From positions 46,756,122-46,820,121 of the forward strand of contig NC_134849.1 in NCBI RefSeq assembly GCF_965363235.1: a stretch of DNA of 64,000 nt. The letters run 5' to 3'. The stretch's first letter is position 1. Each line of letters opens with the position of its first letter. The notes below the pieces were generated by a model. The model was not told where the DNA came from. It did no database searches and was given only the letters and a program-made list of their open reading frames with translations. Positions 1,407 to 57,774 of the stretch are shown here, one piece after another. The position numbers and the translations under genes are program-made. This stretch comes from Mytilus galloprovincialis. Its lineage: Eukaryota; Mollusca; Bivalvia; Mytilida; Mytilidae.

Positions 1407-1601
1407 CTATCCTGGATATCCAGGTGGAAATTATTTTATACTTCCCAGTCCAGTATGTTGATCCGTCACTACCAATATGACCTTTTAATCTATTGCAATT
1501 CAATCCATCTTCATTTGTCGCCAGTCTGCCTCCATGACGATAACAAAACACCTGTGCATCAAACCATGTTTCCTGGTTCGGGAAATAGTGAACAAAATAC
1601 G
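1407..1601 (-). CDS. Gene A exon 2: first half of a C-type-lectin-like domain
   Basis: An exon of 195 bases entered and left in phase 1, with acceptor TTTTTCAG and donor GTAAAT. It carries the CTLD landmarks WFDAQ, a cysteine six residues after that tryptophan region, GGRLATNE, a second cysteine (LNC), YWTGKY and WISRIG. It aligns residue for residue with exon 2 of genes B and C. The second half of the CTLD, with the remaining cysteines, is not in the window. Confidence 0.85.
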
Positions 1602-13054: not shown

Positions 13055-13316
13055 CTATGTTGATGTCATATTGTTTGTCATAATAGCTGTATTAAAATAA
13101 TTGGGATTCTTCTTTTCTTTTTCATTTCCAATCTTAGTATCTGTTGTTCCTACAGGGATAGGTCTACCAGCATGGAACACTTCATTCTCGTATATTCTAT
13201 TCACTGTTTCGTTATTTGAGGGATTCTTTCTCTGTATATCTGTATACATATGAGATGTCCCACTACTTATTTCATCAGGTGTAATATATATACTTTTTGC
13301 TGCAGCTTTTGTGTTC
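13055..13316 (-). CDS. Gene B exon 11: short cytoplasmic tail
   Basis: 262 bases to a TAG at 13055-13057, giving an 87-residue tail. Tyrosines sit in SIYITP, HMYTDI, RIYENE and PNYFNT; YEN and YFN fit the YxN pattern that Grb2-type SH2 domains bind, but no canonical ITIM is present. The end (NPNYFNTAIMTNNM) aligns with the middle of the gene C tail (RPNDVYSTPMKTKNV). Gene B therefore stops about half way along an ancestral tail; the rest survives as decayed sequence downstream. Confidence 0.8.
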
Positions 13317-34300: not shown

Positions 34301-36664
34301 GTACAATGCATGTTTCAGTTTATCTTACAGTATTGAATATGCATGAAATATTTGCTCACTTAAATAGATATAAGAAGATGTGGTATCAGTGCCAATAAGA
34401 CAACTCTCCATCAAATTCACAACTTGTTAAAGTAAACCAGCACAGGTCAAAGAACGGTCATCAACACGGAGTCTCACCTAAACCGAACAGCAAACTATGT
34501 AGGTCCCCTAAATTGACTACTGTAAAACCGACGGTATAATCAATACGATAACCGAGAAACGAGAAAAATCATAAACCACAACAAAAATCGACAGCCACAG
34601 AAAATCAGGTTCCTGACTAAGGACAGGTGCAAACAAATGCAGCAGTTTTAAACGTTTCAATAGATATCAACCTTCACCATTACCTGAAACAACAGCAAAA
34701 TCAACCGAAACAATCAAAAGACATATTAACACAAACAAGTAAATATAAACTGCACGAACGACACAATACAAATACAAAATCGGTAAAATAAGGGGTGGTA
34801 TGTTAAACAATTGCAGAAAGAAATACAGGCAATAAAACATATGACAGTTGTAAGCTAATGCAGTCCGATTAAATTAAACAAAATACGGTGATGGAGAGTA
34901 AGATATCTACCTACAACCCAACCCTTCCCTTCCAACACCACTCTAAAAGGCAGCCAAAAATGATTACTTGTTTTTATAATTTTAAAATGACTTTTACGTT
35001 CTGTTTTAATATAGTTTTGTCCAAAATAAAATTCCAATCGAACAAAAGCCACTTTCAACAAGTCATATTTCAGTTAAACAAAACTTCATTAAAGAAGGTA
35101 TTCTTCTTTGTTATAAGAGTCTTCTTTTGAATGACAGTTTAATCCCAAAGTAGGGCGTCCCTATGAGTGTGTTATATTCCATGCCTCGTGTAGACCTGTA
35201 GAGAGATGTCTCTGAGCATTGAAAATCCTTGCAACCACGTTTTGAGGGGTCCGTAGACAGCCTGTTGATCGTCATCATGACTGCCTCTTTCATAGGACCT
35301 AGCTATTATATTTATGTTTGCCACGAAACGTTAAACTAATAATCTTTAGACAAGGAATAAGTACTAGTATATGTACTAGTTATGATAAGTTTATTAGATA
35401 ACTATCAGATATTTATGTCGGTGTTCAATATATCGATTGAAGGTAGGATTCTTTTTAAAACAGTCTATATAGAACTGAGGACAGGGGACTGTTTAAATAT
35501 TTACTTTTATTATGTATATTAATAATCTTGTTATTACTCTTGTAATGTTATGGCAATAAAGAATTGAATTTATATTTGATTAAATGTAATTCTGAGCACG
35601 TATTCTAAATACGCTATTTTAAAGTATGTAGTTCAGTGGTTTGTCCTCGGTTCATGTCTGTCATATATTTTTTTGGAAATTGTTTAGATATATATTTTTA
35701 AATTTTGTCAAATAAATTGTTTTATATTTTCATGTCTTGTCCTCTTATAGCCGACCATACGGTATGTGATTTTCGTTGATGAAGGCCCCACGGTTGCATA
35801 TAATTTCGTTCATCCAAAAATCGAGGTTCTAGGCTACAGGAGTACATATCAAAGGCACAATACAGGAAATATCTTTTTCAATAGACAGACATATAAAAAC
35901 ACCTAAGGCAAAAGAAACTGCTTCGGCAATACGGGCTTCCAACAAACCATTAAATAGTTGCAGGTGCAGTAAAATACAGTAATGATTGACTAATTAGTTA
36001 TAATATTCAAAACGTCCAATGATAAATATTTCACAGGTACTCTTGACATGATCATCTAAATAAACCGATTAGGCAAGTTATGAAAAAGTGACGAGGGTCG
36101 AGAAATTTGGAATACTTTTCTAAAAAGAGCGTAAATGTATCGTTAGAAAATATAGCCGAAGACTTGTTATAATGCATCAAGCACAAGTTAATGGACGCTC
36201 ATCTTTAGCATGGATATATGGTTTTTTGAAAAGTTTTAAAAGAACACCGTTTTTTACCAGTCCACAATTGATGTCAATTCGGTATAAATTTCTTTTAAAA
36301 GTATGAGCTATTTACAGATATATGATTAAGATCACACTAGCACCTGATAACGATCGACGTATTTACTTTAAATGTTTTCAAGTGATAATATCTGTTGAAA
36401 TTTGATAAAATATTACTGTAAAACTGACTTAAAGAAAAATCCAACATGTAGAAGTCATTTTACAACTTGAAAATAAAACAGTCGAGGTAACAAACTCTTC
36501 ATTTGTTTTCAATAAATCTGTAACTTCGTCATGAACATCTATATATCTCATAAAATATGTTAATAAAGGTTTGCATTTTTTATTTACTCACCGCTTATTT
36601 CGTGCTTTACGAGGATATAGACGAGAAGCAAATTTAGACCCGAAAATAATCTCACAATACACAT
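13055..36664 (-). CDS. Gene B: CTLD(WSC)-CTLD transmembrane receptor, complete
   Basis: Eleven exons, 1494 coding bases, 497 residues. Exons: 36592-36664, 33843-34040, 33255-33364, 26673-26784, 24535-24645, 23395-23550, 22547-22675, 21536-21673, 17940-18068, 14891-14966 and 13055-13316. Residues 1-24 are a signal peptide, 25-90 the first half of CTLD 1, 91-164 a six-cysteine WSC-like domain, 165-201 the second half of CTLD 1, 202-296 CTLD 2, 297-385 a stalk rich in Asn-X-Ser/Thr sites, about 387-409 a transmembrane helix and 411-497 a cytoplasmic tail. All introns are GT-AG and the joined frame has no stop. It is closest in layout to gene C but has two extra stalk exons and a shorter tail. 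A receptor at the plasma membrane is the natural reading; ligand and pathway are unknown. The exon choice is mine and untested by transcripts. Confidence 0.83.
13317..14890 (-). other. Gene B intron before the tail exon
   Basis: No further exon recognised. 14425-14700 has weak likeness to the 'ACCAAGTCAGGAATA' repeat family (a truncated 'tgtaccaactcaga'). A small direct repeat GTCATCGGA GTCATCGGA lies near 14240. Confidence 0.45.
14891..14966 (-). CDS. Gene B exon 10: transmembrane helix
   Basis: 76 bases, phase 1 in and phase 2 out, donor GTACGT. It encodes GLIVGGVLGALAII followed by more Val/Ile/Leu and then KLR, a single membrane-crossing helix with a basic stop on the inner side. Length, phases and the GxIxGGVxG start match gene C exon 9. 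Confidence 0.87.
15241..15476 (+). repeat. 141-bp direct repeat at the left side of the retroelement
   Basis: 'gtgtattctacgacagatat' and about 75 following bases occur at 15241 and again at 15382. Between them lies a 48-bp segment starting TTGTTGGAAATTTC (15334-15381), which recurs at 16728-16775 just past the retroelement's 3' end. Confidence 0.8.
15477..16727 (+). mobile_element. Retroelement (family 1), 5'-truncated, with RT C-terminal coding
   Basis: Up to 16090 the plus strand encodes about 200 residues: FLDLDIYI, TKIYDKRDDF, SPSYGVYLSQLVRFAR and a basic end. This is the part of a reverse transcriptase after the catalytic core. About 640 bases of untranslated 3' sequence follow, with the same end as copies at 6060 and 27236. 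The coding style resembles Penelope-like or LINE-type elements, but there is no endonuclease domain to decide. It sits in gene B's intron on the opposite strand. Confidence 0.75.
17315..17532 (-). mobile_element. Retroelement 3' end (family 2)
   Basis: Reverse complement of the 26040-26286 region: 'agatactagagggatattc' at one end and 'cacccgtcgtgttgctcatt' at the other. No coding remnant is attached. Confidence 0.65.
17940..18068 (-). CDS. Gene B exon 9: stalk, second extra exon
   Basis: 129 bases, phase 1 at both ends, acceptor TTTCAACAG and donor GTAAGA. It is Ser/Asn-rich without cysteines and has sites NSS and NFT. Like exon 8 its length divides by three, so it could be skipped without breaking the frame. 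Confidence 0.72.
18069..21535 (-). other. Gene B intron between the two stalk exons
   Basis: About 3.5 kb. 19975-20770 is a SINE-like copy. A direct pair around 18835-18990 and 19640-19800 ('cgctttgtaaacaacaa', 'cgacacatctatatttagcg') forms a diverged duplication about 800 bases apart. No exon was recognised. Confidence 0.5.
19975..20770 (+). repeat. SINE-like family copy in a gene B intron
   Basis: A diverged, long copy with 'ccattataggcaaccgtaca', a 'tgaccttggacaggcacatg' block and 'ctaacaagtaataataatat' at the end. Its reverse strand is open for 183 codons, which I do not regard as a gene. Confidence 0.65.
21536..21673 (-). CDS. Gene B exon 8: stalk, first extra exon
   Basis: 138 bases, phase 1 at both ends, acceptor TTAACAG and donor GTTAGT. 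It has no cysteine and is rich in Ser, Thr, Lys and Tyr, with glycosylation sites NRT and NKT. No counterpart was found in gene C, whose stalk is a single 39-base exon. It reads as an extended, glycosylated spacer before the membrane. Confidence 0.72.
22519..22540. repeat. (TA)n microsatellite
   Basis: About eleven TA units immediately downstream of the gene B exon 7 donor. Confidence 0.8.
22547..22675 (-). CDS. Gene B exon 7: second half of CTLD 2
   Basis: 129 bases, phase 1 at both ends, donor GTAAGC. It encodes ECEAFRC, NTSC and DGFFCAF, nearly the same spacing as gene C exon 7 (ECTYYHC, NTTC, DGFFCAF). The donor lies just upstream of a (TA)n tract in the following intron. Confidence 0.82.
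23395..23550 (-). CDS. Gene B exon 6: first half of CTLD 2
   Basis: 156 bases, phase 1 at both ends. It encodes WNISQEKC, a second cysteine (DIC) and VWLPM, paralleling the W...C...C...WTG layout of exon 2. The match to gene C exon 6 (WNMFQEKC, IWLPI) supports both boundaries. Confidence 0.8.
24535..24645 (-). CDS. Gene B exon 5: second half of CTLD 1
   Basis: 111 bases in phase 1 at both ends, donor GTAAGT. The cysteine layout NCAFVDC...NC...FC matches the C-terminal end of a CTLD, where the last two cysteines close the fold. It also resembles exon 7 of the same gene and gene C exon 5. Confidence 0.83.
24800..25290 (+). repeat. Two degenerate 356-bp family units
   Basis: Both carry 'gaattt..ttatcccagg', 'ttagccgtatt.ggcac' and a worn GACGAAA motif (24972 and 25237). 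They lie in the gene B intron between exons 4 and 5. Confidence 0.7.
25755..26286 (+). mobile_element. Retroelement (family 2) fragment: RT C-terminus plus 3' end
   Basis: The plus strand reads YGVYISQLIRYSRAC, then FLDRGLLLTRKLLNQEF and LRKFYGRHHELVDRYGI up to a stop at 25986-25988. The 3' region after it ends 'ctttggtatctttcgtccctc'. The SQLxRxxRxC layout shows kinship with family 1 at 15477, but the sequences are clearly different families. It lies between gene B exons 4 and 5. Confidence 0.75.
26673..26784 (-). CDS. Gene B exon 4: WSC-like domain, second half
   Basis: 112 bases, phase 0 in and phase 1 out, donor GTATGT. It encodes the CxC signature of WSC domains (NKCVC), one further cysteine (ENC) and an aromatic end (YYWAYT). 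Two of the usual eight WSC cysteines are missing, as in gene C. Confidence 0.83.
27236..27595 (+). mobile_element. Retroelement 3' end (family 1)
   Basis: Shares 'attgttatgcgtttactttt', 'aacatgtttaaccccgccgc' and the CATTCCCCATTTCCATTCT end with 16370-16727. No coding part is attached, so it is a 5'-truncated insertion. Confidence 0.75.
28640..28870 (-). repeat. 356-bp family fragment
   Basis: In reverse orientation: 'tacgccagacgcgcgtttcg' at 28661, followed by 'tacaaagttgaagagcattg'. It is truncated before the 'gatgccactgctgg' end. Confidence 0.75.
29340..29610 (+). other. Exon-like island of unknown origin in a gene B intron
   Basis: This stretch is less AT-rich than its surroundings. After an ATG at 29510 the plus strand reads MGKDTHSEELIASKVGRSQR and stays open beyond a GTAGTG/GTAATA pair near 29590 that could be a donor. 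No repeat family is recognised. It may be the first exon of an unseen gene on the plus strand, a retrocopy, or chance. Confidence 0.35.
30145..30430 (-). repeat. 356-bp family fragment
   Basis: Reverse orientation, with 'cgacgcgcttttcgtctgca' near 30150 and 'ttcatgtcttctccgaagtg' near 30385. It is diverged but nearly a full unit long. Confidence 0.7.
30889..33210. repeat. Double 1.13-kb unit rich in AGGTCA half-sites
   Basis: Two direct units offset by 1133 bases ('ctaattttgttcttgcgata' at 30961 and 32094). The left edge is a hairpin AGGTCTTTCCAC-6-GTGGAAAGACCT at 30889-30918; GTGGAAAGACC recurs near the right end (33182). Each unit holds AGGTCAAGGTCAAAGGTCA (31354 and about 32487), a second tract of 'gaggtccttgg', and CCGGAAGT boxes. 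There is no coding capacity. It lies between gene B exons 3 and 4. Confidence 0.8.
33255..33364 (-). CDS. Gene B exon 3: WSC-like domain, first half
   Basis: 110 bases, entered in phase 1 and left in phase 0 at a GTAAGT donor. It encodes GCLEILG, then the WSC-type pair SKCFEEC. This aligns with gene C exon 3 (GCYNIT and SECFALC). It lies only 478 bases after exon 2. Confidence 0.8.
33843..34040 (-). CDS. Gene B exon 2: first half of CTLD 1
   Basis: 198 bases, phase 1 at both ends, acceptor TTTAAG and donor GTAAAT. Visible landmarks are WFDAQ, GGRLATNE, LNC, YWTGKY and WISKIG. The classic sugar-binding triplets EPN, QPD and WND are absent, because the exon stops before the loop that would hold them. 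Confidence 0.87.
34370..34850 (+). repeat. SINE-like family copy (variant)
   Basis: 'ataagaagatgtggtatcag' starts it, and 'cacctaaaccgaacagcaaa' shows the variant also seen near 7160. It lies in the first intron of gene B. Confidence 0.65.
35130..35340. other. Less AT-rich island in gene B intron 1
   Basis: A stretch with a more even base mix than its neighbours ('atgcctcgtgtagacctgta'). No frame, splice signal or repeat family recognised. Confidence 0.3.
36592..36664 (-). CDS. Gene B exon 1: signal peptide
   Basis: Seventy-three bases from ATG to a GTGAGT donor, ending in phase 1. It starts MCIVRL like gene A and carries a leucine/valine-rich core (LNLLLVYILV). The start was chosen because it matches the length and phase of exon 1 in genes A and C. 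Confidence 0.82.
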
Positions 36665-43140: not shown

Positions 43141-43621
43141 TTATAATCTATCATACATGTCATCATCGTTTTTCCGCTTTGACATGCTATTTGTTGCTGT
43201 ATTGTAAGTTGGATCAGATTCACACCTCGATGCAATAGTTGTGTCGTATATATTGTGTTCTAATGTGTCGTTTGATGATCGTGGAGTTTTATTCAGTATG
43301 TCATATTCGCTTTCGACATCAATTCCATCTTTAGAATCTTCTTCTTGTGTAAATTGTTCTACATTCTTGGTTTTCATTGGAGTCGAATAAACATCATTCG
43401 GACGAGAGCAATCTTCTCTGTTATCTTTTTCATTTCTTAAACTTTCATCTGGAACAATTTTGCAAGGTGGTAAACACTGTTCATCGTACAGTTTGTTGTT
43501 GTACATTTTACTATTTGTAGAGGATGTCTCCGTGTTATGGTCTTCTTTATAAGTAGGAGATTGTCCATTACTAAATCCAAACAATCTGTCATTTGCCTTT
43601 TTTGATAGAGCGTTTTTACAC
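43141..43621 (-). CDS. Gene C exon 10: long cytoplasmic tail with ITIM-like motif
   Basis: 481 bases to a TAA at 43141-43143, giving a hydrophilic, acidic tail of about 160 residues. Tyrosines lie in SPTYKE, KMYNNK, KLYDEQ, DVYSTP, SEYDIL, NIYDTT, DPTYNT and, just before the end, DMYDRL. SEYDIL (43294-43311) fits the ITIM pattern [SIVL]xYxx[LIV]; DMYDRL is a YxxL site without the -2 residue. An AATAAA overlaps the stop codon but seems too close to serve as the poly(A) signal; another is at 42909-42914. Confidence 0.88.
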
Positions 43622-46600
43622 CTGACAAGAACAATATTAACATATATACTATTCGATAGTTTTGTTTTTAATCGACAGTAATATTTAAAGAAAGAGTGAA
43701 ATTCGTTATTAAAAATATTAAGTTCGAGGTTATACGTACTAGTAAGAATTATCTAAAAACAATTTAACAATCAATCTTCAAACGTTCTATTGATAGTTAT
43801 GAGAGAGATATGTGTGTCGTAAGTGACAAGAATATTTGGATGGTGATACTTTTTTTTATTTATTAACAAAACTCGATGTATAATGGTTATTATTACTTAT
43901 TTGTTAATAAAGAAATGATACCGATCAAGTGAGTGTTTACGATTGCTCATACTTCATAGCAATTAAATCAGGCCATTTCTCCAATCATGTCTTTCATAAA
44001 TAAAATGTCGTTAATTTTGAACGCCAATATGACGTCATTTTTAAGATAGAAGGCGTGTCTGTCATCGTCATTCTGCAGGGTAGTGCCGAAATGATGTTTG
44101 TTCCGCAAATACGTAATCTTCTTCTCCATAGCACGTGACGATCTTAGTTTTCCAAATATTTTGTGTAGTATAAGATCAAATGTTTTCACCCGTTCGCTCA
44201 AAATTAAAACCCGGTGACGCTCGGTCTAAAAGATAACGGGAATTGTGGTTAAGCCGATTTTAATATATCCGTCCTCATTTGTGAAACAGATTTTCCATAA
44301 CGGTTAAGCAACTCGTAATTGTGTTGCCGTAAAGTGTTTGGAAAGATGATTTCAACTTCACCATTTGGATTTCTTGGTACACTAGCTTCCTTGTAAGCAG
44401 CAACCCTCTTTCAGAGAACACTGTCGGGTTCAGAAATTTTCATGAGGGAGATATTTGGTTGATTATATAAAGAAATCACTAACGCATTACTTTTTTTCAT
44501 ACACGAAACGTACCTGAATTTATAAACTATAATCAAAACAATGACGACAATCAGTACTGTGGTGCCTATGACTCCTCCTATGATTATACCTGTACAATAA
44601 GTATATCAGAAATTATAGTATGTATCAATGACGAGTTTATATTATACATAAATCAGCGATGAACAATACCGACAGTATTTTAATGAGAATAAGGTGTACA
44701 GTTGACATTTTAAACTATCGTTTTGTAACCTATAAATTCGAAATGAATATTGTGAGAATAAAAAGAAAGTTTCTGAATAAGTTTAAATCGTGAGCAGTAA
44801 ATTGGCCAACATAAAATTAATCAAATTAGGCAAAGACATCAATATCTGTAAAATCAATTTCGATTTTGTAGAACAATATATTGATTTAAAACAAGCAACA
44901 TCAAACTTCTTTCATATGGTTAAACAAGTGACAATGGATTGTTAAATTTTTGCCAACCTCCCATTACATTGTTTTCTATCTTGATTACAAACTGTGTTGA
45001 AAAGAAATTGAAATTTTATATCATAAGAAACTGTTGTTTGACTCTAACCTCGTTTTAGTATGTAATTTATTAATTGACATGGCAATTTTTATTATTCTTG
45101 AAGTGAAAAATTACTGAAATGATACTGAAATGCGCATGAAATATACATGAAGTGAGAAAAAGAATGTGTATAGAAGTTACCAGTATGAGGTGTTACAGCC
45201 TGATCCAAATAGTCTGTATCTAGCAAAAAGATAGATAATAAGGGATTTTATAAATAAGACATGTTTAAAAAGCTTTGATATCTTAATAATATTGATTTGA
45301 AAATGCATCATATTTAAAATATAATAGGTTAAAGATTTTCATGTACATTAACACCATATTACCACCTGTTGATTAATTAGATGATTTGGTTTCTATAAAA
45401 TGTATCGATACTGAATGTATATGTTACAGACAAAAATATTTTACTGTTGGTTGAACGATCTTGGCCTTTGTATAATTTGTTCATATTTTTTAATCATATT
45501 CTTTATATATATTCTACATAAGAAAATTTCTGTACCAAATTGGGAAAATGATGCTCTATAGGTTTGAACTATCGATTTTGCCATTTGATATGGGACTATC
45601 CGTTTTGAATTTTTTTCGGAGTTCAGTATTTTTGTGGTTTTACTTTTTATGTGTGTCATGTATATTGAGGAGAAAGCTTTTTCCAAAATATTTTACAAAC
45701 TATCTTTTGTGTCTGAAATTTTTATAGCTGTGCTTTGATGTATTTATATTTGGTTGAAGCATATTGCTAGAATACGCTATGAATAAAACAGGGTATACAG
45801 AAGAGGTTAGAATGTATGACTGTTTTAATCTAATTTTTTTAATAAGGTAGCAGATATCTTAAGTATGAAACAACAGCTGTTCATTTGGTAATACCAAAAT
45901 ATTAAAAACAGAATCAGGAATGTTTGTCATATACAAGTTATAGTAGAAAATATAAAACCCGACGTGAACAAATTTCGCTCAGAAAAATGTATTCTGTGTT
46001 ATTTTTTTCGTATGTTCATTTAGCACGTACATTATGCTATTTTAGCCTGCAAGAGAAAAATCCTCCTTATCAATGTCTTCACTTATCATAAATGCTTGGC
46101 TAATTTTAACTTTTATGAAAGACTTCGTGTTTATATTTAATGCATTATCATTTATCTTTGTGCTTTCAATTCTTAGTTCGTTTGATAAATATGTACTCAC
46201 TTTTAGCAAATGCACAAAAAAATCCATCAGTCATAGATTTGCAAGTGGTATTAACATGCATTGGATGCACTTTTTGTTTGTTATAACAGTGGTAATATGT
46301 GCATTCCGAAACATCCTTTTCGTTGTAAATTTCATCTTTAAACGGTAAATGTACAAAGTAAAACCACAATAGGTAAACTTTATTATAAAGTAAATTAGAT
46401 ATTGTTCAAAATTGATTTCTTTATACTAAAAAGAATTAATAAAAACACATTGCGTTCATCTTTGAGCTTTTTGTCTGTATATAAAATATTTTTTTAATAA
46501 AATGATAAAAATGGTTCGTATTTATATTTACAAATCTTTAATTTCAAGTGCCATATGTGGAGCAGGATCTACCTACCTTTCCGGAGCACCTGAGATCATC

Positions 46601-49600
46601 TCCACTTTTTGGTGGGATTCGTGTTGCTTATTCTTTAGTTTGATATGTTGTGTCATGTGTAATACTGTTTGTCTGTTTGTCTTTTTCATATTTAGTCATG
46701 ACGTTGTCAGTTTATTTTCGATTTATGAGTTTAACTGTCCCTCTGGTATCTATCGTCCCTCTTTGAAAGCTTTGCTTACAAGAATATGAAAACTATCCGT
46801 TCTTGTTTCTGTTCTAGTTATTATGCAGTAGCCTTATTTAATACATATATCAAATAAATGAGGGTTTTCGGTCAGGAACCTTTGTATATATACAGATCAT
46901 AACATGACATTTTTCAAATCATACCACTTATCAGCCCTAGGTCATGATATCAGCCCGTGAGCCGGTAGTCTCGATGGATGATTTTGACCATGGGCTGCTG
47001 ATAAGGGGTCTGGTATGGAAAATGTCATGTTATGTTCTTTTTATCATTTACTTCAACAGAAGACTTACAAACAAAAACCATTTTTAAAACTTGATGCTTT
47101 TGTTGTAATATTTGTTTTGCATTTTTTAATAATTTTCCTGATTCCTAATATTATTTTTGTATCCAACTTTGTTATGTTTTACACAAATAAACGTACCAGT
47201 GAGGTTTATTTTACGGAAATTGCCGAATGACGTCGAAATGTCATCCGACAAAGTTACAGAAAAGCATGCGATAATAACCGGAAGCAGTTGATAACAAAAG
47301 TCATATCACGCGGCTACGACATTTCTTCAAATTTAATGAATAAATATATGTATAAATAATTTTATCATGGGGTTCAATTATACCATTATTTTCTATAAGT
47401 ATTAGATAAAACCTGCTATCTGTAAAGGGTTATCTATTGACATTATAGAGGCAGACTTAAGATAACACACGATCTGTATGTACTCACTTGATTGGCATAG
47501 GTGGTCAAGTTTAGAATTTGAAAGTGTATTTACTAGAAATTGGAAACCTCATTTTGTAAAAATCCAGCGGTACATAATCTTTATTGTTGGAAGTTCATCG
47601 TCTGATTTTTTTTAGACCAATTTGTAACACTTGTTTTCTCGATAAAAAAAAGGTGGCAATGACTTATTGTCCGAAAATGATGAAAACGATAGTCATGTTA
47701 GGACGTAGCTGTAAATAGATATTGGAAGATGTGGTATGAGTGCCAATGAGACAACTTTCCATTGAATTCACAATTTATACAGTAAACCATTATACATTGT
47801 AGGTCCAGGTACGGTATTCAAAATTTAGAGTAAATGATTAAATTTATTTATATTATATTGATTTATCGAATGTTGTGCAACTAAATCCACCCAAGAATTA
47901 GATTTCTGCTCATTTTTTCAAATGCACAACTTATGCTATAAGTCCTCATTGTGAAATTTAAATAAAAAACAGCGATAACAGCTCTGCTTCTGTGCTTTTG
48001 CTATATTCAGTAAAACTAAAACTTGTTTTATATGCAATTGGTCACCTAAGAACTTTTAAAGATGTTTTAAGTGTGTGTTGTGTAATGTGCATAGAGGTTA
48101 ATAATTTTTCACACAGGGTATCGGAATTAACATATCCATTCCAACCAGTTCATGACAATAATAATTGATCGTGATAGTCAATAACGGTACATATCAACAC
48201 TGTAATATATTGGTTACCATAATTTAAATAGTAGCTACTTAGTATTCGTGCGCCTTCTCGAATGAACTTGGGTCGCTCAGATTGTCCATCCTTTTTAACT
48301 GTGTTTTTGATAGCTGGTGGTAACCTAACATAAGTTTTATTCATCCCACTAAGTAATGTTTACCGATTGAAGTTCGTGTTATGAAAGAAGTATATGGTTA
48401 GAAAAAAATAAGTTTTACGTTATAACGAAAATATGGTCAATATATTTATAGTTTCAAATAAGAAATCAAAAGGTCATTTAAAGCTGGAGACACACTATAT
48501 AAAGTTCAGACAAAGTTCAAAGACTCCCTTTGTATTATAAATTTGAATACTTACGGCCTATTATCTCAGTCCGAATGGTCAATTTTTGAATAGGTAACCA
48601 TATACCTCCTCTATAGCCTACATCGTAATGCATTTTGCAGGTAGTGTTTAGATTTTCTAGGACAATATTTCTGCATTTTTCTTGGAACATGTTCCAGTAT
48701 AAACTGCTTGTACTATCACCTGTATATATAAAACAAATACCGGATCATTCATGATTGTTGAATTTCTTGTGATGTTAAAATACCATTAGATCATTCTGAG
48801 TAAAATGAACAGATCTCATTCTAAATCAGGAGTAAATATGTTTACACTGTAGTAGAATTAACATTGTCACTTTTACAACCAATTAGCATATACATTTCTT
48901 TTGCACTAGATAATATGAATCATTGAAAAGGGACATATGAATACAATTCGAAATTCATTAAGTATGTTTCTATTTAACCCGCCTCCGCTGGGAACTCGCG
49001 TATAACTTTCTACTTTTTGCATTATAATACATTACACAGATATATCGGTTAGATCCCAGTTTATTCATATACAACTCTAGATTTAATAGTTAAGTTGACC
49101 GAGTTTTCAAGAGCGCTAAATCGAGTTTTCTATGTCTAAAACGTTTGGTAGAGTGGTGTTCTATGACATTTACCAAATGTTCTGTGGCGATTGACCAAGC
49201 GTTCTATAGCGTTTGAACAAGTCTTCTATGGTGTGTGGTCAAGTGTTTACGGCGTCTGGCCAAGTACTTATGACATTTTATCTAGTTTTCCAATGCGTTT
49301 TAACAGAGTTTTCAAAATCGTTTGATAGCGTGTTCCTTGATGTTTGAAAAAGTTTTCTATAACGTTTGAACCTGTGTTCTATTGCGTTTTGCCAAGTGTT
49401 CAATGACATTTTACGAAGTTTTCTATGTCGTTTGATCATGTGTTTTATGGCGTTTGACTGAGTTTTCTATGTCCTTTAAGCATGTGTTTAATTGCGTTTG
49501 ACCGAGTTTTCTCTGTCGTTTGACCATGAGTTTTGACTTGAGGTGACGGCAATAGGTTTATAACAGTTTTTAATGTTAATCCCGTTTATAAAACAGTATA

Positions 49601-52600
49601 AGCGAGTGTAAAAATTGGTTCGTACATTTTTGAAAAGAGTAAAAATATACACGAAAATTCATTTTTGGTCTTTTGCTTGTATTACATATATACACTCGGA
49701 CGAAAAGTAGGAACCATCAATTTTACTTTTTGGAATATTCCTTACAGTGTAACCATTCTCCAAACGAAAGTGTCTTCCCTAAAATTGTAAACATAAGGTT
49801 CCTTACAGATACAAGTAGACCAATCTTTCGAGATGACAGCGCTTAATTGTTGTTCTATAGTAGTTGGATTGTAAGATATTTTATTCGAAGTCAATTGACA
49901 ATATAGCATTGACACCAGACATATCTGTTCGACTTTATTGGGCAAAATTGTGTTTTTTTTTACCAAAACGAATTCATAATCGATATTTACTCTCATTTTG
50001 ATTTTACATTTATTATAAGTGAAAATGGTCCCTTAAATATTTTTCTTGCTTTCTCCTGTTATAAAAATAAGCATAAAATTTGAAAAATGTATGGTTCAGT
50101 CTTATAACTTGGTAAAGGTACTGTTCGTGACTAAGGTTTTCACCAAATAACTGCATGCTCTGTAAATTAATCTTTAACATTCGTTTAAAAATCTATTGGG
50201 GTTTAACTTTTTTCCCGAGTGTATATAGTTAAAGAAAAAGACCTCTTCCAGATAAACACAATATTAATGCTATAAACATTTACTAGTTATTTACCACAAA
50301 ATGCAACCCGTTTGTCCTTGCAAGAAGATGGAAAAGTCTGGTTTTGTTCACAATCAAAATAGGCACAACTATCTTTGGACTGGTTCAACGCCACAACTAA
50401 AAGTAAATTAGTATTCAACTTTAAAACAAAATATTCAAAAGATAAATCATGATGTAAATGTACACCACCGATACAAAAGGCAATATGTGTCCAATATGCA
50501 TTATGGTATTGCTTGCACCCAATAGTCAAGCAATTCTGTCGTTCAAATAATTAACTTGTTTTAATGGCATCACATGTTTCAATTAACCAACTTAAATTAT
50601 ATTTGCACTAAACAAAACAAAAAAGTGTCTTCTTTATTTATAGTTCAACGCAATCGGCAATCTGATCGACTCAATTTCAAAAATGTTCCTCATTATCATT
50701 AATCTCGAAACGTTAAATGTTTTATTTTTTATTTATCTATTTCGTTATTTGTTATTTCAGCGTTTCTTTTTGTTGTTACTTGGGATTATTATGTTCGCTA
50801 CTTCCAGATTCCCAACATTTCGTGTCGAGCTACATATGGTGTGGATGATTTATCACTACCAATAGTTTGATGTAGCCGTCGTGAGATTTGGAAGCTATAA
50901 CTGCTTTCCTAAAAGAAGTATGGTTGAAATTTTGATTAAATAATGCCAATAACGCTAATGAAGTATACTTCGTGAAACGGGAAGCCTGACAAAATCCCAT
51001 ACGACTCAAATTCTCGAGACAAAACCCTCCCAATTTATGATTACCAAATTTGAAAAATAGTGTAGTAGCAATTTTGTCTCGTAATCATAGCAATAAATTT
51101 GAATTGCTTGAATTGATTCACATTTGGTCATTCCCAAGCCTTTAAAATAAATCACAAAAAGGCATGACATTTTGCTAATTGTTTCCATCTACGTTCTTTT
51201 TTTGTTCTCCGAGTAATTTGTTTCATACACACCACAACTCCTTTTTTTTTCGAATACATTAGGTTTTGAATAAACAAGAATGTTATAAATTGTATCGCTG
51301 TGTTCCATGTGAAAGTCATAATTCCAATCTAATTAAAATCAAATCCTTTAATTTTAATTAGATTGTCATTATTCGGACATTTAGTTCAAAACCTTTAGCA
51401 ATAGGAACTTTTGCATGTGAAAGATTATCCCTATGTGTAGGATCATGCGGTTTAAAACGATCATTGCATGATCAAATCAAATTTGGAAACGGTAAGACAA
51501 AACGATTTTTTTTTAAATAAATGCTGTTGAATTGCCTGAATTAAAAACAATGCAATGATCCTTTACTTTTTATGTCAAATTAAAAACAGGTGATACATAG
51601 TTTATAAAGTCATGAAAATTCTATGTAAGTAAAACATACCTTCGTATGAGAAGTATGCCTTCTTTAACTTAATAAATTCACTGCAGTTGTGACTTTCGTG
51701 TAGTGTCATCAGTGCATTGTTGTGTAAGCAAACACATTTCTGGTCCTATAAATGTACGAATATGTGTATGCTGATATAAATTACTTCTAAATATCAAAGA
51801 TTACATAAAAAATTATAAATTTCTTACAATAAATAATGATTCTACCACTGAATCGAGTGTGATACGATATTTATTCACTTGAAACAGTTGAATATTCAAA
51901 TTTAAAACGCGAGTCTCGCCAAGCATTTTAAATATTTAAAATTTAATTGTCGAGATTTAGTGGTGGAATCTGTTTCTCTGATGATTTTCTAACAATATGC
52001 CGGAAAAGTTATTACTTCTTTTTGAATGATCTGCAAAAAGATGAATTCTTTCTATGTGACGTCATCAGGCATGGTCGCTTTTTTCATGCCGTCACTATAG
52101 GAAATTCAGAAAGAAGCAAGGAAATTCGACGTCATAATCTGATTTTAGCCTATGAAGAACTGAGATCAAACGAACCACACGTTAATTAAATGTCTTTACA
52201 CAATGGGTGCAGAAAGGGTTAAATTGTCGAAGAATTAGAGTTATTAGTTTATATTCAAAATGATTAGAAATGCAATATTGGTAGTCAGGATATAACGTTT
52301 GCTAATATTAACTGGTACATGACGGGTGTTTCTGAATTAGATCCTATTCGCCCCTTTCGAGAAAAAATTATTTTAGAAATAGATAAAACACATCACAATT
52401 GATAGCATCGATACAAGGTGACCTCGACACTCCGTTTAAGGTCAGATTGTCTACTGCATGAAATGTGTCATTTGTGCTTGCAGTCTTATTAACTATTATT
52501 ATTAACTAATGTGATATACCTGACTTAGGTTTCGGGACTAAAGACAAGAATATATATTGTAAATAAAACGAAGAGCTTTCAACATGTTCAATTTATGATT

Positions 52601-55600
52601 CATTTACTTTGGATTCAAACGTCAAAAGAGGCTGATACATGTAATCATCACAACAATCATGGTTAAGACAATACAGTTCCTGAAAATACGGATTCAACAT
52701 AGATATATATATATATATATAAAACACTAAACCGAATAAGATATTTATATGAACACATTTTCATATCAGGCTTGTCAAATTGAGAATGAGACAAAGAAAC
52801 AAAAAAACAACAAAAAACAGTCCACTAATGGGTTTTTAGCACAGCGATGAAATCCCGCACTCCTAAACTAGCTTACATATAAGGATAAGAAGATGTGGTC
52901 TGATTGCCAATGAGACAACTCTCAACAAGAAACCAAATGACACAAAAATTAACAAATAGATAATCGTACGGCTATCAACACTGAGTAAAATTCAAATCGC
53001 ATAGTCAGCTATAAAAAGCCCGAAATGGCAAATGTAAAACAATTCAAACAAGACAATTTAAGGCCTGATATAGGTACACAATGATATAAGAAAACGAATA
53101 TAATACACAGTAACAAATGACAATTACTGAATCACAGGCTCCTGGCTTGAAACCGGCACACACAGACTAAGGCGGGATGAACCTAGTTTGAAGGCGTGCA
53201 AAGCCTCACCACCTTACCTGGGATCGTGATTTAATACTACAACATAAGGAGAAACTATTAATATCATTTGAAAAGGGCTTAATTCATCAGATCAGTTCAA
53301 AGAAAAATACATCTAATTTAAACACAGAGTGGACGTGACAGGGTCATAACTCATAAAAACAATCATGCGTCTAAGACTAAACTATTGATGAGTAGAATTT
53401 AAACAGGGGTATACTACTGTTGCCTTTATCTAACATTCAATGTATTTAGTGTATGCAGACGTCATAGGCAGTCAGCGAAAAAACACATGGCGTTGTGCAA
53501 TGTATATATTGACCAAAACCTTTCATTCAATTTCTTCAAACTTGGACGGCAAGGGAAATAGGATAGAAATGTATCGTGTTTTAATTTTATAACTTACTCT
53601 AAGTCTGTAGGCAAAACGATGGAGGCTAATATTCTGTTTTCTGCATAGTGCAAAACACTCTGACAATGATAGCCAGGAAACATCTGTTGTCCTTGTAATG
53701 TTGTAGCAACCTATAAGAACATACAAAGTATTAACACGAATACCAACTTAAAAAGAAAATTAAAAAGGAGACGTCCTAAAAAACTGACAACACCAAACGT
53801 CAGACTTGATTAACCAATGAATATTCTGCCTTTTCCAAAGAATATTTTGTCAAATATTTAAAGTTTTATAAATGATTATGGATGGCTGTTAGACACCTTT
53901 TGAAAAATGAAGTGCAAATGTAAAACGAGTAAAAATATTAATGGAATGATTATGATTCGATATGCTGAGCCGGATTATTAACGTGTTAGTTCCTACAGTA
54001 AGACATATCACCATACACTAACTCATTATTCTGTTTTCTAATGTCTTTTCACTAAAGAACAGTAACATATAAATAAGAAGATAAGTTATGATAGACAATA
54101 AGACCGCTCCCCATCAGAGACCTTACGACAAAGACGTTTATAACTTAGGGTCACCGTGAGGCAAAACCAATACGCATAGTCATTATACCATATATCGGAT
54201 TATTTATGCTGGTAAAAAATTTCTCGATTTTCATTAAATGAGGTATACGGAATAGTTTGACGGTTATTATTTTGGCGGATTCATAACTTTTATTCATACC
54301 TTATCACGAACACTTTTAAATTGGCGGAATTTATTTTGACGATTTTGTTCTATCCGCGAAAATAAGGGAAAATTTACACCTCGCGACAATAACCCGCTAT
54401 GCGTTAATTGGCCTTGAAATACCAAATGTAAAACAATTCAAACGTAAAAACTAAAGGCATTTTTTAAGTAATTGAATAATGAACTCAATACGAATATGAT
54501 ATACAGCAAAAAACGACAACCACTGAATTACAGGCTAATGATTTGGGACAGGTAAATACAGATTATGGCATGGGAAATCATGTTTGTAGGGTCTAAACCT
54601 AACCTGGGTCAGTTGTGTAACAGTACAACATATGAACAAACTACTAGTATAACCATCAGTTGAAAAGGGCTGAACTCATCAGATCGATAAAAAGAGAAAA
54701 ACAAGTTAAAAGACACAGACCGGATATGGCAGTGTAATAACACATCCCACCAACAGACAGGCATTAAGTACAGATCTGAGAGTATTTGTAGTTACTGATA
54801 GCTCAGCCTTGTTCAAAGTCAATAACAACTAATAAAAAAATCATGTATCGAATACTTTAATATATATCAGCACGCATCAAACAACCAATGGATTAAGTGT
54901 AAGGACATCATCAACAGTCATAAAAAAAACATGCCCTTGTGAAATACTAAAATACAGGAATCGACATATTTTAGAACCGTGAATGTGCATATTATATCAA
55001 CTGAGTTTGTCTCTCATGGTATTTGGAGGCCGTCTAAAACTTCCTCGTGCTTGCTATAAATGCTCCTTTCATTTTTGGGGCGGGATCAATAAACCGTTAT
55101 TTATACATCAAAACTCTACTGGTTATCAGCATTTCAGATACACCAAAGCAGGTAAATGTACTTCATATCTGAGAAAGAGATAATATGTGCGCTCAATTGA
55201 AAAATGAATGTTAAGATCCCCGAAGGACGATGAGATTTGAACGACTCTTTGTGAGGAGGTCTCTTAATGTCAACATTAAATCAATCTTTGTTTTTATGTT
55301 CGAATTTAGTAAAGGTTTTAAGTAATTTATGATAAAGAGATTCCTGACTTATTCCCAGTAATCAGTATATTACGCTCAGTGATATCCAAAACGTCACTAC
55401 AGACACGGGCATAGCAAAAATTACCTTTTTCCTATACTAAGGACAAATAACTTATAGTTTTTTATAGTATGATAATGGCATTAATTTATGTAAATTGTAT
55501 ATTTTCCGTAATACCGGGTAGATATGAAACTTTATAAATTCTTCTTTATTATTGCATGCCTTTCCGTAACGTTATCGCATGTCAACTCGACGTCACTCGT

Positions 55601-57774
55601 CGAATTCCGGAAAATACACCTGTACTGAAAAAAGAATGATACAATAAAATGCATTTTTTCAGAAATTTTAAAAATAGTTTTTGTTTGTATTTTTTTTACT
55701 GCAGAGTATGTGATAAAAAGATTTGAACTTGTACTTGAGATCCACTTAAAAGGATCATTATATCAAATATTATTTTTCTACATTGTTCAAGCATATGATA
55801 AAAAAGATCATAACATGACTTTTCTCATATTAGATGTATTATCAGCCCTAATTTAATATCAGACCTCGAGCATTGGGTAATCTCCTGGGTAACTATTGTA
55901 TGTCCCTACTATAGATTGGTAGTTGTATATCAGAATCGTGTCTTTCTTTGCTGTTTATGGTGTTGTTCTATGAAATAATTACTGCAGACGGTTTTTCGCT
56001 TTTAAGGGCATCCGATGCAGTTTCAAGGGAGTTACCTCTCTTTGCTTGACGTTAAACGTTTCGAATTCCCACAAAGCGTCACTTTTTGCGGGACGTTATG
56101 CGTGTAATTTTCCGTAATAAGAACGATATTTTGTATAATCAATGCTCATGTTTTCTGTTTCTCACGCATGCTAACTTCTACACCATTTATGTATGCTTAT
56201 CCTTTAAGGAATTATTGGGGTATAAAACCACTAATTCATATAGCCTCATTGCTTTCTATGTTAAATTCTGCCATTTCAACCATTTATGGCTACTTTGTCC
56301 CGAATTAAAATAAAGTGCCAGTTATTTCATGTAAAACTGTACCTGTGCTGAAAAAGTCGACATACCATTAATCGCATATTAGAGCGTATTGGTTCCCGGA
56401 AGTTTATATTATAAAAACAGGAACTTTTGATCTGACCAACAACCTTAATGTGCTCTCCTATAAAAATTTCATATACATCTTTATTATTCAAATAAATCTT
56501 CCACCAAGGATTCTACAGTGATCCCAAGCCCTCTAGCTTTCATTTGATACCGAAACTACCCAAATATTCCCCCTATTATACAAAGAAACAGCTATATATG
56601 CATAGGAACTTTTTTTTGTTTAAAATATGCACTACTTTCTTGTATGTTCTTTCAGACCGGGCCTGAGATAGTGGTTTTATACCTATAAAGACTGTATGTT
56701 GACCTCGATAAGTAATTGTTATGGCATTGGGTTACTGTCCAATTTCAGGTTTCTTTATCTAAAATGTATATTTCAAACCTGTTATTGCTTTTTAAAGGTA
56801 TGACCATCGTCTAATCAGATGACTTTTAATAATTAAACACTGTACATTTAGATATTTTAACATGCTTTAAATTAAATGTAAACTACAAATACCTTCCCTG
56901 GATATCCAGTATGACTTTGTGTACTCTCCTGTCCAAAATGTTGAGCCTTTAGCCGAATCAACGTCACCTTCAATTTTATCACATGTTAATGTGCTTTCCT
57001 TATATGTTGCTAATCTACCTCCTGCATGCTGACATTTTGTCTGGGCTTCAAACCAAGTACTTGGTTGTCGAAAATACTTTACATGGACTGCTGGAAACAT
57101 CAATAAAAGAAATCACAATAATAAGTAGTAAATAACAGTAAGTTCTGCAATAATAAATGCATCTATGTATGTTTACAAATCGACCATTCAAATAAAAGAG
57201 TAATTAAAATACAGTTTAAAAATCATTGTTCTACACGAATATTTCTTCTGTAACGTTCTTCTAATTAATCTTCGAATTTGTTTCTTAAATTTACAATTTT
57301 CTGAATCGTTTGTTATTACCTGCGTCGTCGAATGCAAAGCATGCATGCGTAGATTAGTAATCGCCGGTTAGGCCTTGAGAAGGAAACTTTTGGACAGACC
57401 TGCAAACAAGACTAGCACGTTGATTTTTTCTGTGGGTAACTTGAACTAATAAAATAAAAATAAAAATTCAAATCGAAAGTCAAAACTTGTACTTAATTTG
57501 TTTCCTTAATTCTGGATTTTCGTCAAAAAATGTCAATTAGATGGATAGAAAAACAGTTAGTATTTTTTTATGTGAGTATTTTAGAAAAGTTCTAACTTCT
57601 AAGTCCGGATATTCCCTGAGAGTTCTTTAACCGAAAAAGTGTTTAAATATTGTCTAACTATTTGCAAATGTAACTTTCAAAATATATTTGTATTAACTTA
57701 CCACTGGCATTATTGATGATCATGGGAAAGACATGGAACAAAATATATAACAATACAAATCCTACATTATTCAT
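43141..57774 (-). CDS. Gene C: CTLD(WSC)-CTLD transmembrane receptor with ITIM-like tail, complete
   Basis: Ten exons, 1488 coding bases, 495 residues. Exons: 57702-57774, 56893-57090, 53598-53710, 51640-51745, 50295-50396, 48555-48719, 46201-46335, 45181-45219, 44514-44589 and 43141-43621. Residues 1-24 are a signal peptide, 25-90 the first half of CTLD 1, 91-163 a WSC-like domain, 164-197 the second half of CTLD 1, 198-297 CTLD 2, 298-310 a short stalk, about 312-334 the transmembrane helix and 336-495 a tyrosine-rich tail. The extracellular part has many N-glycosylation sites (NIT, NIS, NCS, NQS, NQT, NTT twice). All junctions are GT-AG and the frame stays open. It is the best-preserved member of the array. 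A signalling receptor, perhaps inhibitory, is inferred from the tail; no ligand can be named. Confidence 0.86.
44275..44425 (-). mobile_element. Retroelement (family 2) coding remnant
   Basis: Reverse complement resembles 25840-25960 ('gttgctgcttacaaggaagc', 'ttcaccatttggat'). A very short piece between gene C exons 9 and 10. Confidence 0.55.
44514..44589 (-). CDS. Gene C exon 9: transmembrane helix
   Basis: 76 bases, phase 1 in and phase 2 out, donor GTACGT. It encodes GIIIGGVIGTT followed by a Val/Ile/Leu run and YKFR: one helix with a basic cytoplasmic anchor. Confidence 0.9.
45181..45219 (-). CDS. Gene C exon 8: short stalk
   Basis: A 39-base exon, phase 1 at both ends, acceptor TTTTTGCTAG and donor GTAACT, encoding a 13-residue spacer (TDYLDQAVTPHTG). 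It takes the place of the two long stalk exons of gene B. Its small size makes it the least certain exon, but the frame and phases fit exactly. Confidence 0.66.
45520..45660 (+). repeat. Fragment of the 'ACCAAGTCAGGAATA' family
   Basis: 'attttgccatttgatatggg' followed by 'ttcggagttcagtatttttg', in a gene C intron. Confidence 0.6.
46201..46335 (-). CDS. Gene C exon 7: second half of CTLD 2
   Basis: 135 bases, phase 1 at both ends, donor GTGAGT. It encodes SECTYYHC, NTTC and DGFFCAF, the same cysteine spacing as exon 5 and as gene B exon 7. The acceptor (GTTTAAAG) is weak but is conserved with gene B (GCATTAAAG). Confidence 0.82.
46540..46768 (+). mobile_element. Retroelement 3' end (family 2)
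   Basis: Matches 26070-26286: 'ttccggagcacctgagatca', 'gtcatgacgttgtcagttta' and the end 'ctctggtatctatcgtccct'. It lies in the gene C intron after exon 6. Confidence 0.7.
46907..47290. mobile_element. Foldback element with inverted arms
   Basis: 'gatcataacatgacattttt' and CTTATCAGCCC at 46907-46945 reappear inverted as GGGCTGCTGATAAG and 'aaaatgtcatgttatg' at 46990-47036. The tail to 47290 resembles, inverted, 55560-55625, and a second copy of the arm is at 55808. It is a nonautonomous element of unknown class. Confidence 0.6.
47725..47815 (+). repeat. SINE-like family, 5' fragment
   Basis: 'ggaagatgtggtatgagtgc' and 'caatgagacaactttccatt' only; the rest of the family consensus is missing. 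Confidence 0.7.
48555..48719 (-). CDS. Gene C exon 6: first half of CTLD 2
   Basis: 165 bases, phase 1 at both ends, acceptor TATACAG and donor GTAAGT. It encodes LYWNMFQEKC, NTTC and GGIWLPI, matching gene B exon 6 and, more loosely, the CTLD 1 first half. Confidence 0.83.
49135..49535. repeat. 22-bp degenerate minisatellite with 44-bp higher order
   Basis: About 18 units of the type TTCTATGTCGTTTGACCATG in the gene C intron between exons 5 and 6. At the right end, neighbours alternate between endings GTGT and GAGTT, so the best-preserved period is 44 bases. Units decay leftward. Confidence 0.8.
49693..50221. mobile_element. Short inverted-repeat DNA element (mariner type)
   Basis: CACTCGGACGAAAAGT at the left and CACTCGGGAAAAAAGT (inverted) at the right, each bordered by TATATA. 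The minus strand is open for 84 codons inside (to 49742) and may be transposase remains. It lies in the gene C intron between exons 5 and 6. Confidence 0.6.
50295..50396 (-). CDS. Gene C exon 5: second half of CTLD 1
   Basis: 102 bases, phase 1 at both ends. The layout SCAYFDC...SC...AFC corresponds to the closing part of a CTLD. In an ordinary CTLD this would follow directly on the WTG segment of exon 2; here the WSC exons stand between them. Confidence 0.84.
51640..51745 (-). CDS. Gene C exon 4: WSC-like domain, second half
   Basis: 106 bases, phase 0 in and phase 1 out, donor GTATGT. It carries the WSC CxC motif (QKCVC), another cysteine (HNCS) and the end AYFSYE, which resembles the SVY end of WSC domains. 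Exons 3 and 4 together are 219 bases, exactly 73 codons. Confidence 0.86.
52870..53480 (+). repeat. SINE-like family copy, long
   Basis: 'agaagatgtggtctgattgc' to 'gtctaagactaaactattga', with 'acaggctcctggcttgaaac' in the middle and a 3' extension past 53400. It lies just downstream of gene C exon 3. Confidence 0.8.
53598..53710 (-). CDS. Gene C exon 3: WSC-like domain, first half
   Basis: 113 bases, phase 1 in and phase 0 out, acceptor CTTATAG and donor GTAAGT. It opens with GCYNITR, the usual WSC start GCY, and continues to SECFALC, the second and third WSC cysteines. Confidence 0.85.
54065..54970 (+). repeat. SINE-like family copy split by an insertion
   Basis: The family order runs from 'aataagaagataagttatga' to 54185, is broken by about 225 foreign bases (54186-54410), then resumes at 'tggccttgaaataccaaatg' and continues to about 54970. 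Confidence 0.7.
55555..55950. mobile_element. Second copy of the foldback element
   Basis: 55560-55625 matches the inverted tail of the element at 46907-47290 ('cgcatgtcaactcgacgtca'). 'gatcataacatgacttttct' with TTATCAGCCC lies at 55808-55850. Confidence 0.5.
56893..57090 (-). CDS. Gene C exon 2: first half of CTLD 1
   Basis: 198 bases, phase 1 at both ends, acceptor TTTCCAG and donor GTATTT. It encodes TWFEAQ, a cysteine (TKC), GGRLATYKE, a second cysteine (LTC), FWTGEY and WISREG. It is the most diverged of the three exon 2 copies but keeps every landmark. Confidence 0.88.
57702..57774 (-). CDS. Gene C exon 1: signal peptide
   Basis: Seventy-three bases, ATG to a GTAAGT donor, phase 1. 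It starts MNNVGFVLLYILF, a typical hydrophobic leader, but lacks the MCIVRL start of A and B. A TTTTCAG lies two bases before the ATG and could be an acceptor for an upstream untranslated exon. Confidence 0.85.

What the first reader, a model, noticed from the sequence alone, without database searches (positions are those of the whole stretch)
50295..57090. A WSC domain nested inside a C-type-lectin-like domain
In genes B and C, exon 2 holds the first half of a CTLD (W..AQ..C..GGRLA...WTG) and exon 5 its closing half (C-x4-C...C...FC). Exons 3 and 4, a complete six-cysteine WSC-like domain, lie between them. The insert falls where the CTLD long loop, normally the sugar-binding site, should be. 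CTLD 2 has the same split (exons 6 and 7) with nothing inserted. The cassette enters and leaves in phase 1 (219 bases in C, 222 in B), which is what exon shuffling into a mid-CTLD intron would leave. I know of no described family with this arrangement, though I cannot search.
Basis: partly seen in the sequence, partly recalled or inferred. Interest (0 to 1): 0.88.

Follow-up and report, generated by a model that had tools for sequence, protein, structure and literature searches.

The report
WSC-like domain inside a split CTLD
A small tandem family of animal cell-surface receptor genes appears to carry one cysteine-rich, WSC-like domain in the middle of another, a C-type-lectin-like domain, at the place where the lectin's binding loop would normally be; the gene layout is real, but the folded structure is still unproven.

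Summary
The exon anatomy is confirmed. On the minus strand gene C (57774-43141) reads as nine exons with one 482-aa frame: signal peptide, exon 2 (CTLD first half), exons 3-4 (six-cysteine WSC-like module), exon 5 (four cysteines), exons 6-7 (second cysteine-rich unit), transmembrane segment, tyrosine-rich tail. Gene B is collinear. Exon 2 as a CTLD first half is fairly well supported. Exons 3-4 as a divergent WSC module are supported by cysteine spacing and weak profile matches; canonical WSC domains have eight cysteines, and the two missing here form one disulfide pair. CTLD 2 matches no Pfam model. A WSC-like module shuffled into a CTLD intron remains the best reading (0.6). My paper searches found no description of it. 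New variant of a known kind, pending transcripts and a structure.

The parts
57702..57774 (-). gene C exon 1, signal peptide, ends in phase 1
56893..57090 (-). gene C exon 2: CTLD 1 first half (W-x6-C, GGRLA, WTG)
   Evidence: Lectin_C E 0.0074 alone; in a profile with A and B, hits to CTLD receptors in the PDB
53598..53710 (-). gene C exon 3: WSC-like first part (Cys 1-3), phase 1 in, phase 0 out
51640..51745 (-). gene C exon 4: WSC-like second part (Cys 4-6), phase 0 in, phase 1 out
50295..50396 (-). gene C exon 5: proposed closing half of CTLD 1 (C-x4-C-x9-C-x7-C)
   Evidence: CTLD identity inferred (searches gave no profile support)
48555..48719 (-). gene C exon 6: proposed CTLD 2 first half
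   Evidence: no Pfam match
46201..46335 (-). gene C exon 7: proposed CTLD 2 second half (C-x4-C-x14-C-x8-C)
44514..44589 (-). gene C transmembrane exon
43141..43621 (-). gene C cytoplasmic tail exon with stop codon; 8 tyrosines, among them SEYDIL and a C-terminal MYDRL
36592..36664 (-). gene B exon 1 (signal peptide), resembles gene A exon 1
33843..34040 (-). gene B exon 2: CTLD 1 first half
33255..33364 (-). gene B exon 3: WSC-like first part
26673..26784 (-). gene B exon 4: WSC-like second part
24535..24645 (-). gene B exon 5: proposed closing half of CTLD 1
23395..23550 (-). gene B exon 6
22547..22675 (-). gene B exon 7
14891..14966 (-). gene B transmembrane exon, same length and phase as in C
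13055..13316 (-). gene B tail exon, ends at an early stop codon compared with C
   Evidence: start counted by hand from the sequence printed
4004..4076 (-). gene A exon 1 (signal peptide)
   Evidence: similar to gene B exon 1 found
1407..1601 (-). gene A exon 2: CTLD 1 first half; the rest of gene A lies beyond the window start

Best explanation
Genes A, B and C are tandem paralogues for a type I membrane receptor. Its first extracellular unit is a compact CTLD without the usual sugar/calcium loop motifs. At the point where the long loop would leave the fold, shortly after the WTG strand, a WSC-like (PAN/Apple-type) module is spliced in; the chain then returns to close the CTLD with exon 5. 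The module entered by exon shuffling into a phase-1 intron downstream of the WIGL motif, before the B-C duplication. Likely working (inferred): the PAN core brings its two chain ends close together, so it can stand on the CTLD as an interchangeable head; it contacts a glycan or protein ligand, and ligand-driven clustering lets kinases act on the tyrosine motifs of the tail. Shown: exon order, phases, open frame, B-C conservation, CTLD-like first half, cysteine skeleton of the WSC-like module. Inferred: exon 2 and 5 packing, origin by shuffling, ligand, signalling, expression.
For: Exon anatomy and open frame. Exons 2-7 similar between B and C beyond shuffles and collinear. Exon 2 is a CTLD first half. 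Exons 3-4: Pfam WSC E 0.048 in C and 0.011 in B; of 50 cysteine-fixed shuffles one matched WSC at E up to 1, at 0.046. Cysteine gaps 16,3,18,1,14 (C) and 17,3,16,1,16 (B) against 21,3,15,1,14,3,7 in yeast Wsc1; a spacing in ranges that I set around Wsc1 and Kremen 1 arises in 32 of 400000 random placements. In Wsc1 the bonds are C1-C6, C2-C4, C3-C5 and C7-C8 (PMC9024836, passages), so the two cysteines missing here are one bonded pair. A phase-0 intron lies in the WSC region of Kremen 2 (PMC3927609, passages), as here. CTLD introns downstream of WIGL are known in fish antifreeze-type and group VII/XII CTLDs (PMC514892, passages). For exon 5: C-x14-C-x7-C (C) and C-x15-C-x7-C (B); gene C's joined exons 2+5 gave a weak PDB match (E 0.042, factor IX-binding protein) running on to the third cysteine of exon 5; joined B exons 2+5 align to Lectin_C positions 2-105 of 107. 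Half a CTLD is not expected to fold alone, and exon 5 is the next exon with a closing pattern (inference).
Against: With the insert in place neither the B nor the C ectodomain matches Lectin_C or WSC in Pfam. The WSC and Lectin_C scores of window proteins are all below Pfam's curated cut-offs; for B's module DUF1262 scores almost as well as WSC (E 0.015 against 0.011). The PDB E-value of 6.9e-6 sums several CTLDs of one receptor; its best single stretch has i-Evalue 0.34. Joining exon 5 does not raise the Lectin_C score over exon 2 alone in B (18.1 against 18.7 bits) and lowers it in C (14.0 against 17.5); of the hybrids, A exon 2 + B exon 5 rises (20.9 against 18.9), A exon 2 + C exon 5 and B exon 2 + C exon 5 do not (18.3 and 15.7). 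Shuffled exon 5 does as well in 18 of 40 and 11 of 30 cases, the best shuffle (1.9e-5) far better than the real one (0.0048). Exon-5 profiles hit no CTLD in the PDB, nor does the WSC-like profile hit Kremen or Wsc1 there. The CTLD closing spacing occurs in about 9% of random placements. CTLD 1 and CTLD 2 profiles do not match. Exon 2 alone folded at pLDDT 45.7, uninformative. No transcript evidence.
Confidence: 0.6

Rival explanations
1. Exons 3-4 are an alternative cassette. As a symmetric 1-1 unit they can be skipped without a frame shift, so the locus makes two receptors: a plain compact CTLD (exon 2 joined to 5) and a WSC-bearing form.
For: Exon 2 to exon 5 splicing keeps the frame in B and C. 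The borders of exons 2-7 except 3/4 are phase 1.
Against: No transcript data. The cassette is kept with its cysteines in both paralogues, which says it is used, not that it is optional.
Confidence: 0.2
2. No nested fold: exon 2 is a decayed or non-canonical half CTLD, exons 3-4 a separate WSC-like domain, and exon 5 another short disulfide-bonded segment, strung in a row.
For: No profile support for exon 5 as a CTLD half. Both exon 2 (2 Cys) and exon 5 (4 Cys) have even cysteine numbers and could pair internally.
Against: Exon 2 is kept in three paralogues with CTLD motifs (C-B 32 of 65 identical) although half a CTLD lacks its closing strands. Exon 5 has cysteine gaps of the CTLD closing type.
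Confidence: 0.2
3. The inserted module is not a WSC domain but another PAN-like or unnamed six-cysteine domain.
For: Lacks Cys 7, Cys 8 and the CGG motif typical of WSC (sequence; definition). Pfam WSC scores are below the cut-off, and DUF1262 is close behind for B. The PDB profile search found no WSC protein.
Against: Cys 1 and Cys 6, whose bond is one of two described as specific to Wsc-like domains against PAN, are both kept. WSC is the best Pfam match of both copies.
Confidence: 0.25
4. Gene-model artefact: the exons belong to different genes or to decayed copies.
For: Gene B has an early stop in its tail with decayed homology beyond it. Repeats lie in and around the long introns.
Against: Gene C has a complete 482-aa frame over nine exons. 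Order, strand and phases are the same in B, and dN/dS is below 1 in the five modules compared C-B (0.24-0.67, silent sites partly saturated).
Confidence: 0.07

Closest known systems
Canonical C-type lectin-like domain (Pfam PF00059), including CTLDs with a short long-loop region
   Same: First half with W..AQ..C, GGRLA and WTG; proposed C2-C3-C4 spacing in exon 5; an intron downstream of the WIGL motif is known in fish antifreeze-type CTLD genes and groups VII/XII (PMC514892, passages).
   Different: No EPN/WND-type loop motifs in the joined sequence (motifs recalled); a 73-74 aa cysteine-rich module sits where the long loop would be; no significant profile match for the second half.
WSC domain (PF01822) of yeast Wsc1 and animal Kremen
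   Same: Cysteine gaps of the first six cysteines; probable bonds C1-C6, C2-C4, C3-C5; a phase-0 intron inside, as reported for Kremen 2 (PMC3927609, passages).
   Different: Cys 7, Cys 8 and CGG absent; weak profile scores; nested instead of in a row (Kremen is kringle, WSC, CUB).
Polycystin-1
   Same: A membrane protein with both a WSC and a C-type lectin domain (PMC9672506, passages).
   Different: There named as separate domains of a very large 11-TM protein; here nested, in a 482-aa single-pass receptor.

Membership tests
C-type lectin-like domain (CTLD 1) | First half: helix with W..A...C, GG.LA, WIGL-type strand | tested here: met
   (Lectin_C E 0.0026-0.0074 for exon 2 of A, B, C, below the cut-off; PDB profile search, several CTLDs summed, E 6.9e-6)
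C-type lectin-like domain (CTLD 1) | Second half with C2, C3, C4 closing the fold | tested here: inconclusive
   cysteine gaps fit a recalled signature, about 9% by chance; weak match; no profile support
C-type lectin-like domain (CTLD 1) | Single double-looped fold formed by both halves | not testable with these tools
Calcium-dependent sugar-binding CTLD | EPN/QPD and WND motifs in the long loop | tested here: not met
   read from the joined exon 2 + 5 sequences of B and C; motif definition recalled
WSC domain | Eight cysteines with C7-C8 and CGG | tested here: not met
   six cysteines in both copies; definition from PMC9024836 passages
WSC domain | Spacing of first six cysteines (C-x21-C-x3-C-x15-C-x-C-x14-C in Wsc1) | tested here: met
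   32 of 400000 random placements fall in the ranges I set
WSC domain | Pfam profile match above curated cut-off (27.8 bits) | tested here: not met
   14.3 (C) and 16.4 bits (B)
C-type lectin-like domain (CTLD 2, exons 6-7) | Profile match to CTLD | tested here: not met
   no Pfam match for C or B; the PDB profile search gave one unrelated protein at E 0.16

The most novel reading that the evidence does not exclude
An expanded receptor family in which a WSC/PAN module has replaced the ligand-binding long loop of a CTLD by exon shuffling into the CTLD's own post-WIGL intron, so that one binding fold serves as the pedestal for another: a nested receptor head not described in the papers I could search.
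Probability: 0.5. Interest if true: 0.72.

Novelty: new variant of a known kind. Interest (0 to 1): 0.5.

Why it matters
If the fold is as proposed, it shows that the CTLD long loop can be exchanged for a whole independent domain at a known intron position. That would give invertebrate receptors a modular way to change specificity, and it would be a clear, testable case of domain nesting by exon shuffling.

Tried and rejected
Rejected: chance or artefact for the exon layout. Rejected: exon 5 as the missing end of the WSC domain; the gaps expected after Cys 6 (3 and 7 in Wsc1) are not there. Led nowhere: scans for relatives in viral contigs (93 pattern matches, 0 relatives) and in bacterial and archaeal genome contigs (31 pattern matches, 0 relatives); PDB searches with the WSC-like (1 unrelated hit, E 0.19), CTLD 2 (1 unrelated hit, E 0.16), whole-ectodomain (3 hits, two of them CTLD or Link proteins matched in exon 2, best E 0.47), exon 5+7 (2 unrelated hits, E 1) and exon 5 profiles (0 hits); the exon 2 fold, so no fold search was made on it; the CTLD 1 against CTLD 2 profile comparison. 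The control with shuffled exon 5 went against my expectation and removed Pfam as support for the closing half (at E 0.0048: 18 of 40; at E 0.0075: 29 of 40; free shuffles at 0.0048: 11 of 30). Yardstick: in Pfam Wsc1 scores 57.9 bits for WSC, Wsc1 with its end replaced by gene C's 42.1, and gene C's module with the Wsc1 end 33.3, so loss of the last two cysteines explains part, not all, of the low score of 14.3. In one search the exon 2 start of gene A was one base off and its printed translation is wrong; one search shows the right start and one search uses it (1601).

Full report
What is there. The window holds three tandem paralogues, one of them partly, on the minus strand. Gene C runs from 57774 to 43141: signal peptide exon, exon 2 (57090-56893), exon 3 (53710-53598), exon 4 (51745-51640), exon 5 (50396-50295), exon 6 (48719-48555), exon 7 (46335-46201), a transmembrane exon (44589-44514) and a tail exon (43621-43141). 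The internal borders are AG/GT, and the join is one open frame of 482 aa. Gene B has the same exons in the same order and phases. Gene A shows only exon 1 and exon 2 before the window ends. The finding's coordinates, phases and lengths (219 and 222 nt) are right.

Is it more than chance? B and C exons aligned better than all of 2000 shuffles for exon 2, exons 3+4, exon 6 and exon 7, also with cysteines held fixed; for exon 5 it was 0 of 2000 free and 5 of 2000 with cysteines fixed. In an unbiased scan of 252 minus-strand reading frames of the gene C region against the gene B region, exons 2, 3, 4, 6, 7 and the tail found their collinear partners at E up to 0.01. Exon 5 and the transmembrane exon did not (the latter was found without masking), and many other hits, also of 243 plus-strand frames, were repeats or the opposite strand of exons. 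Identity C-B is 32 of 65 (exon 2), 22 of 71 (exons 3+4), 11 of 33 (exon 5), 35 of 95 (exons 6+7) and 13 of 25 (TM); dN/dS is about 0.24, 0.54, 0.43, 0.47 and 0.67, with silent sites partly saturated. These exons look like coding sequence kept by selection.

Exon 2 is half a CTLD. Pfam Lectin_C matches exon 2 alone in A, B and C at E 0.0026, 0.0031 and 0.0074, profile positions 2-46 of 107, below the curated cut-off. A profile of the three copies (with exon 5 for B and C) finds in the PDB the IgY receptor at 6.9e-6, the phospholipase A2 receptor at 0.00048, DEC-205 at 0.0046 and the mannose receptor at 0.034; of 23 sequences listed 19 are named as CTLD proteins and four are not (two pyruvate oxidases, an uncharacterised protein and a chain labelled TNFalpha). 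The first values sum several CTLDs of one chain; the best single stretch of the IgY receptor has i-Evalue 0.34. The whole ectodomain with the insert in place gave no Lectin_C or WSC match in either gene.

Exons 3-4 are WSC-like. Pfam WSC is the best match of both copies (E 0.048 in C; 0.011 in B, where DUF1262 follows at 0.015), below the cut-off. Of 50 cysteine-fixed shuffles (25 of each copy) one matched WSC at E up to 1, at 0.046. The cysteine gaps (16,3,18,1,14 and 17,3,16,1,16) follow yeast Wsc1 (21,3,15,1,14,3,7); random placement falls in the ranges I set around Wsc1 and Kremen 1 in 32 of 400000 draws. In Wsc1 the bonds are C27-C86, C49-C69, C53-C71 and C90-C98, the middle two shared with PAN/Apple domains (PMC9024836, passages). 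The six cysteines kept here correspond to three complete pairs; the missing two are the fourth pair, together with the CGG motif. A profile of the two copies does not find Kremen or Wsc1 in the PDB, so I call it WSC-like, not WSC proper. A phase-0 intron is reported within the WSC-coding region of Kremen 2 (PMC3927609, passages); the intron between exons 3 and 4 is phase 0 too, though I could not compare positions.

Exon 5 is the weak link. Its cysteine gaps (4,9,7 in C and 4,10,7 in B) contain the CTLD closing spacing (signature recalled), but random placement gives that in about 9% of cases. In favour, gene C's joined exons 2+5 gave a weak PDB match (factor IX-binding protein, E 0.042) that runs through exon 5 to its third cysteine, and B's join aligns to Lectin_C positions 2-105. 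Against, adding exon 5 to exon 2 does not raise the Lectin_C score in B or C (of three A/B/C hybrids only A exon 2 with B exon 5 rose, by 2 bits), cysteine-fixed shuffles of exon 5 reach the real value in 18 of 40 cases and free shuffles in 11 of 30, some far better, and exon-5 profiles find no CTLD in the PDB. The case for exon 5 is therefore mainly by position and elimination: exon 2 is a conserved half domain, the six cysteines of exons 3-4 are accounted for by the WSC bond pattern, and exon 5 follows with a fitting pattern. Exons 6-7 repeat the cysteine layout (two, then four with gaps 4,14,8) and the phase-1 split, but match no Pfam model. Of four joined comparisons with CTLD 1 the two with gene C's copy were reached by 19 and 3 of 2000 free shuffles, the two with gene B's copy by 1179 and 887; the profile comparison was negative.

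How it probably arose and works. CTLD genes with an intron downstream of the WIGL motif are known (fish antifreeze-type proteins and groups VII and XII; PMC514892, passages). Here the insert lies at such a place, with phase-1 borders on both sides: the layout that exon shuffling into an intron would leave. It was there before B and C separated. [quoted passage not shown] The product is a single-pass receptor with seven N-glycosylation sequons between residues 25 and 297 and eight tail tyrosines, including SEYDIL and a C-terminal MYDRL. Tyrosine signalling, ligand and clustering are inference.

Literature. I searched for WSC with C-type lectin in bivalves, Mytilus, Crassostrea, molluscs and polycystin, and for short loops of and insertions into CTLDs. 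I saw the listings with the start of each abstract; three lists were cut (15 of 99, 15 of 97, 12 of 20). I saw passages of PMC4581086, PMC514892, PMC7618208, PMC9672506, PMC9024836, PMC3927609 and PMC2792708; in PMC13114784, on domain insertions, the words lectin, C-type and WSC do not occur. Nothing that I saw describes this arrangement. The library lacks most papers of subscription journals and bioRxiv preprints.

Noticed in passing
window 13057-12857: Gene B's tail exon stops early compared with gene C; homology goes on beyond the stop with further stops, so gene B has a shortened tail or is decaying.
   Followed up: partly
window 43621-43141: The gene C tail has eight tyrosines, among them SEYDIL (relaxed ITIM-like, motif recalled) and an acidic C-terminal DDDMYDRL; Pfam finds nothing significant in it.
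   Followed up: partly
window 15428-16087 (+): A 220-aa open frame in a gene B intron looks like a fragment of a reverse transcriptase-type element (recalled impression); a short similar frame lies at 2527-2853.
   Followed up: no
window 9461-9786 and 10997-11205: A block with nearly the same reading frames occurs twice, about 1419 bases apart.
   Followed up: no
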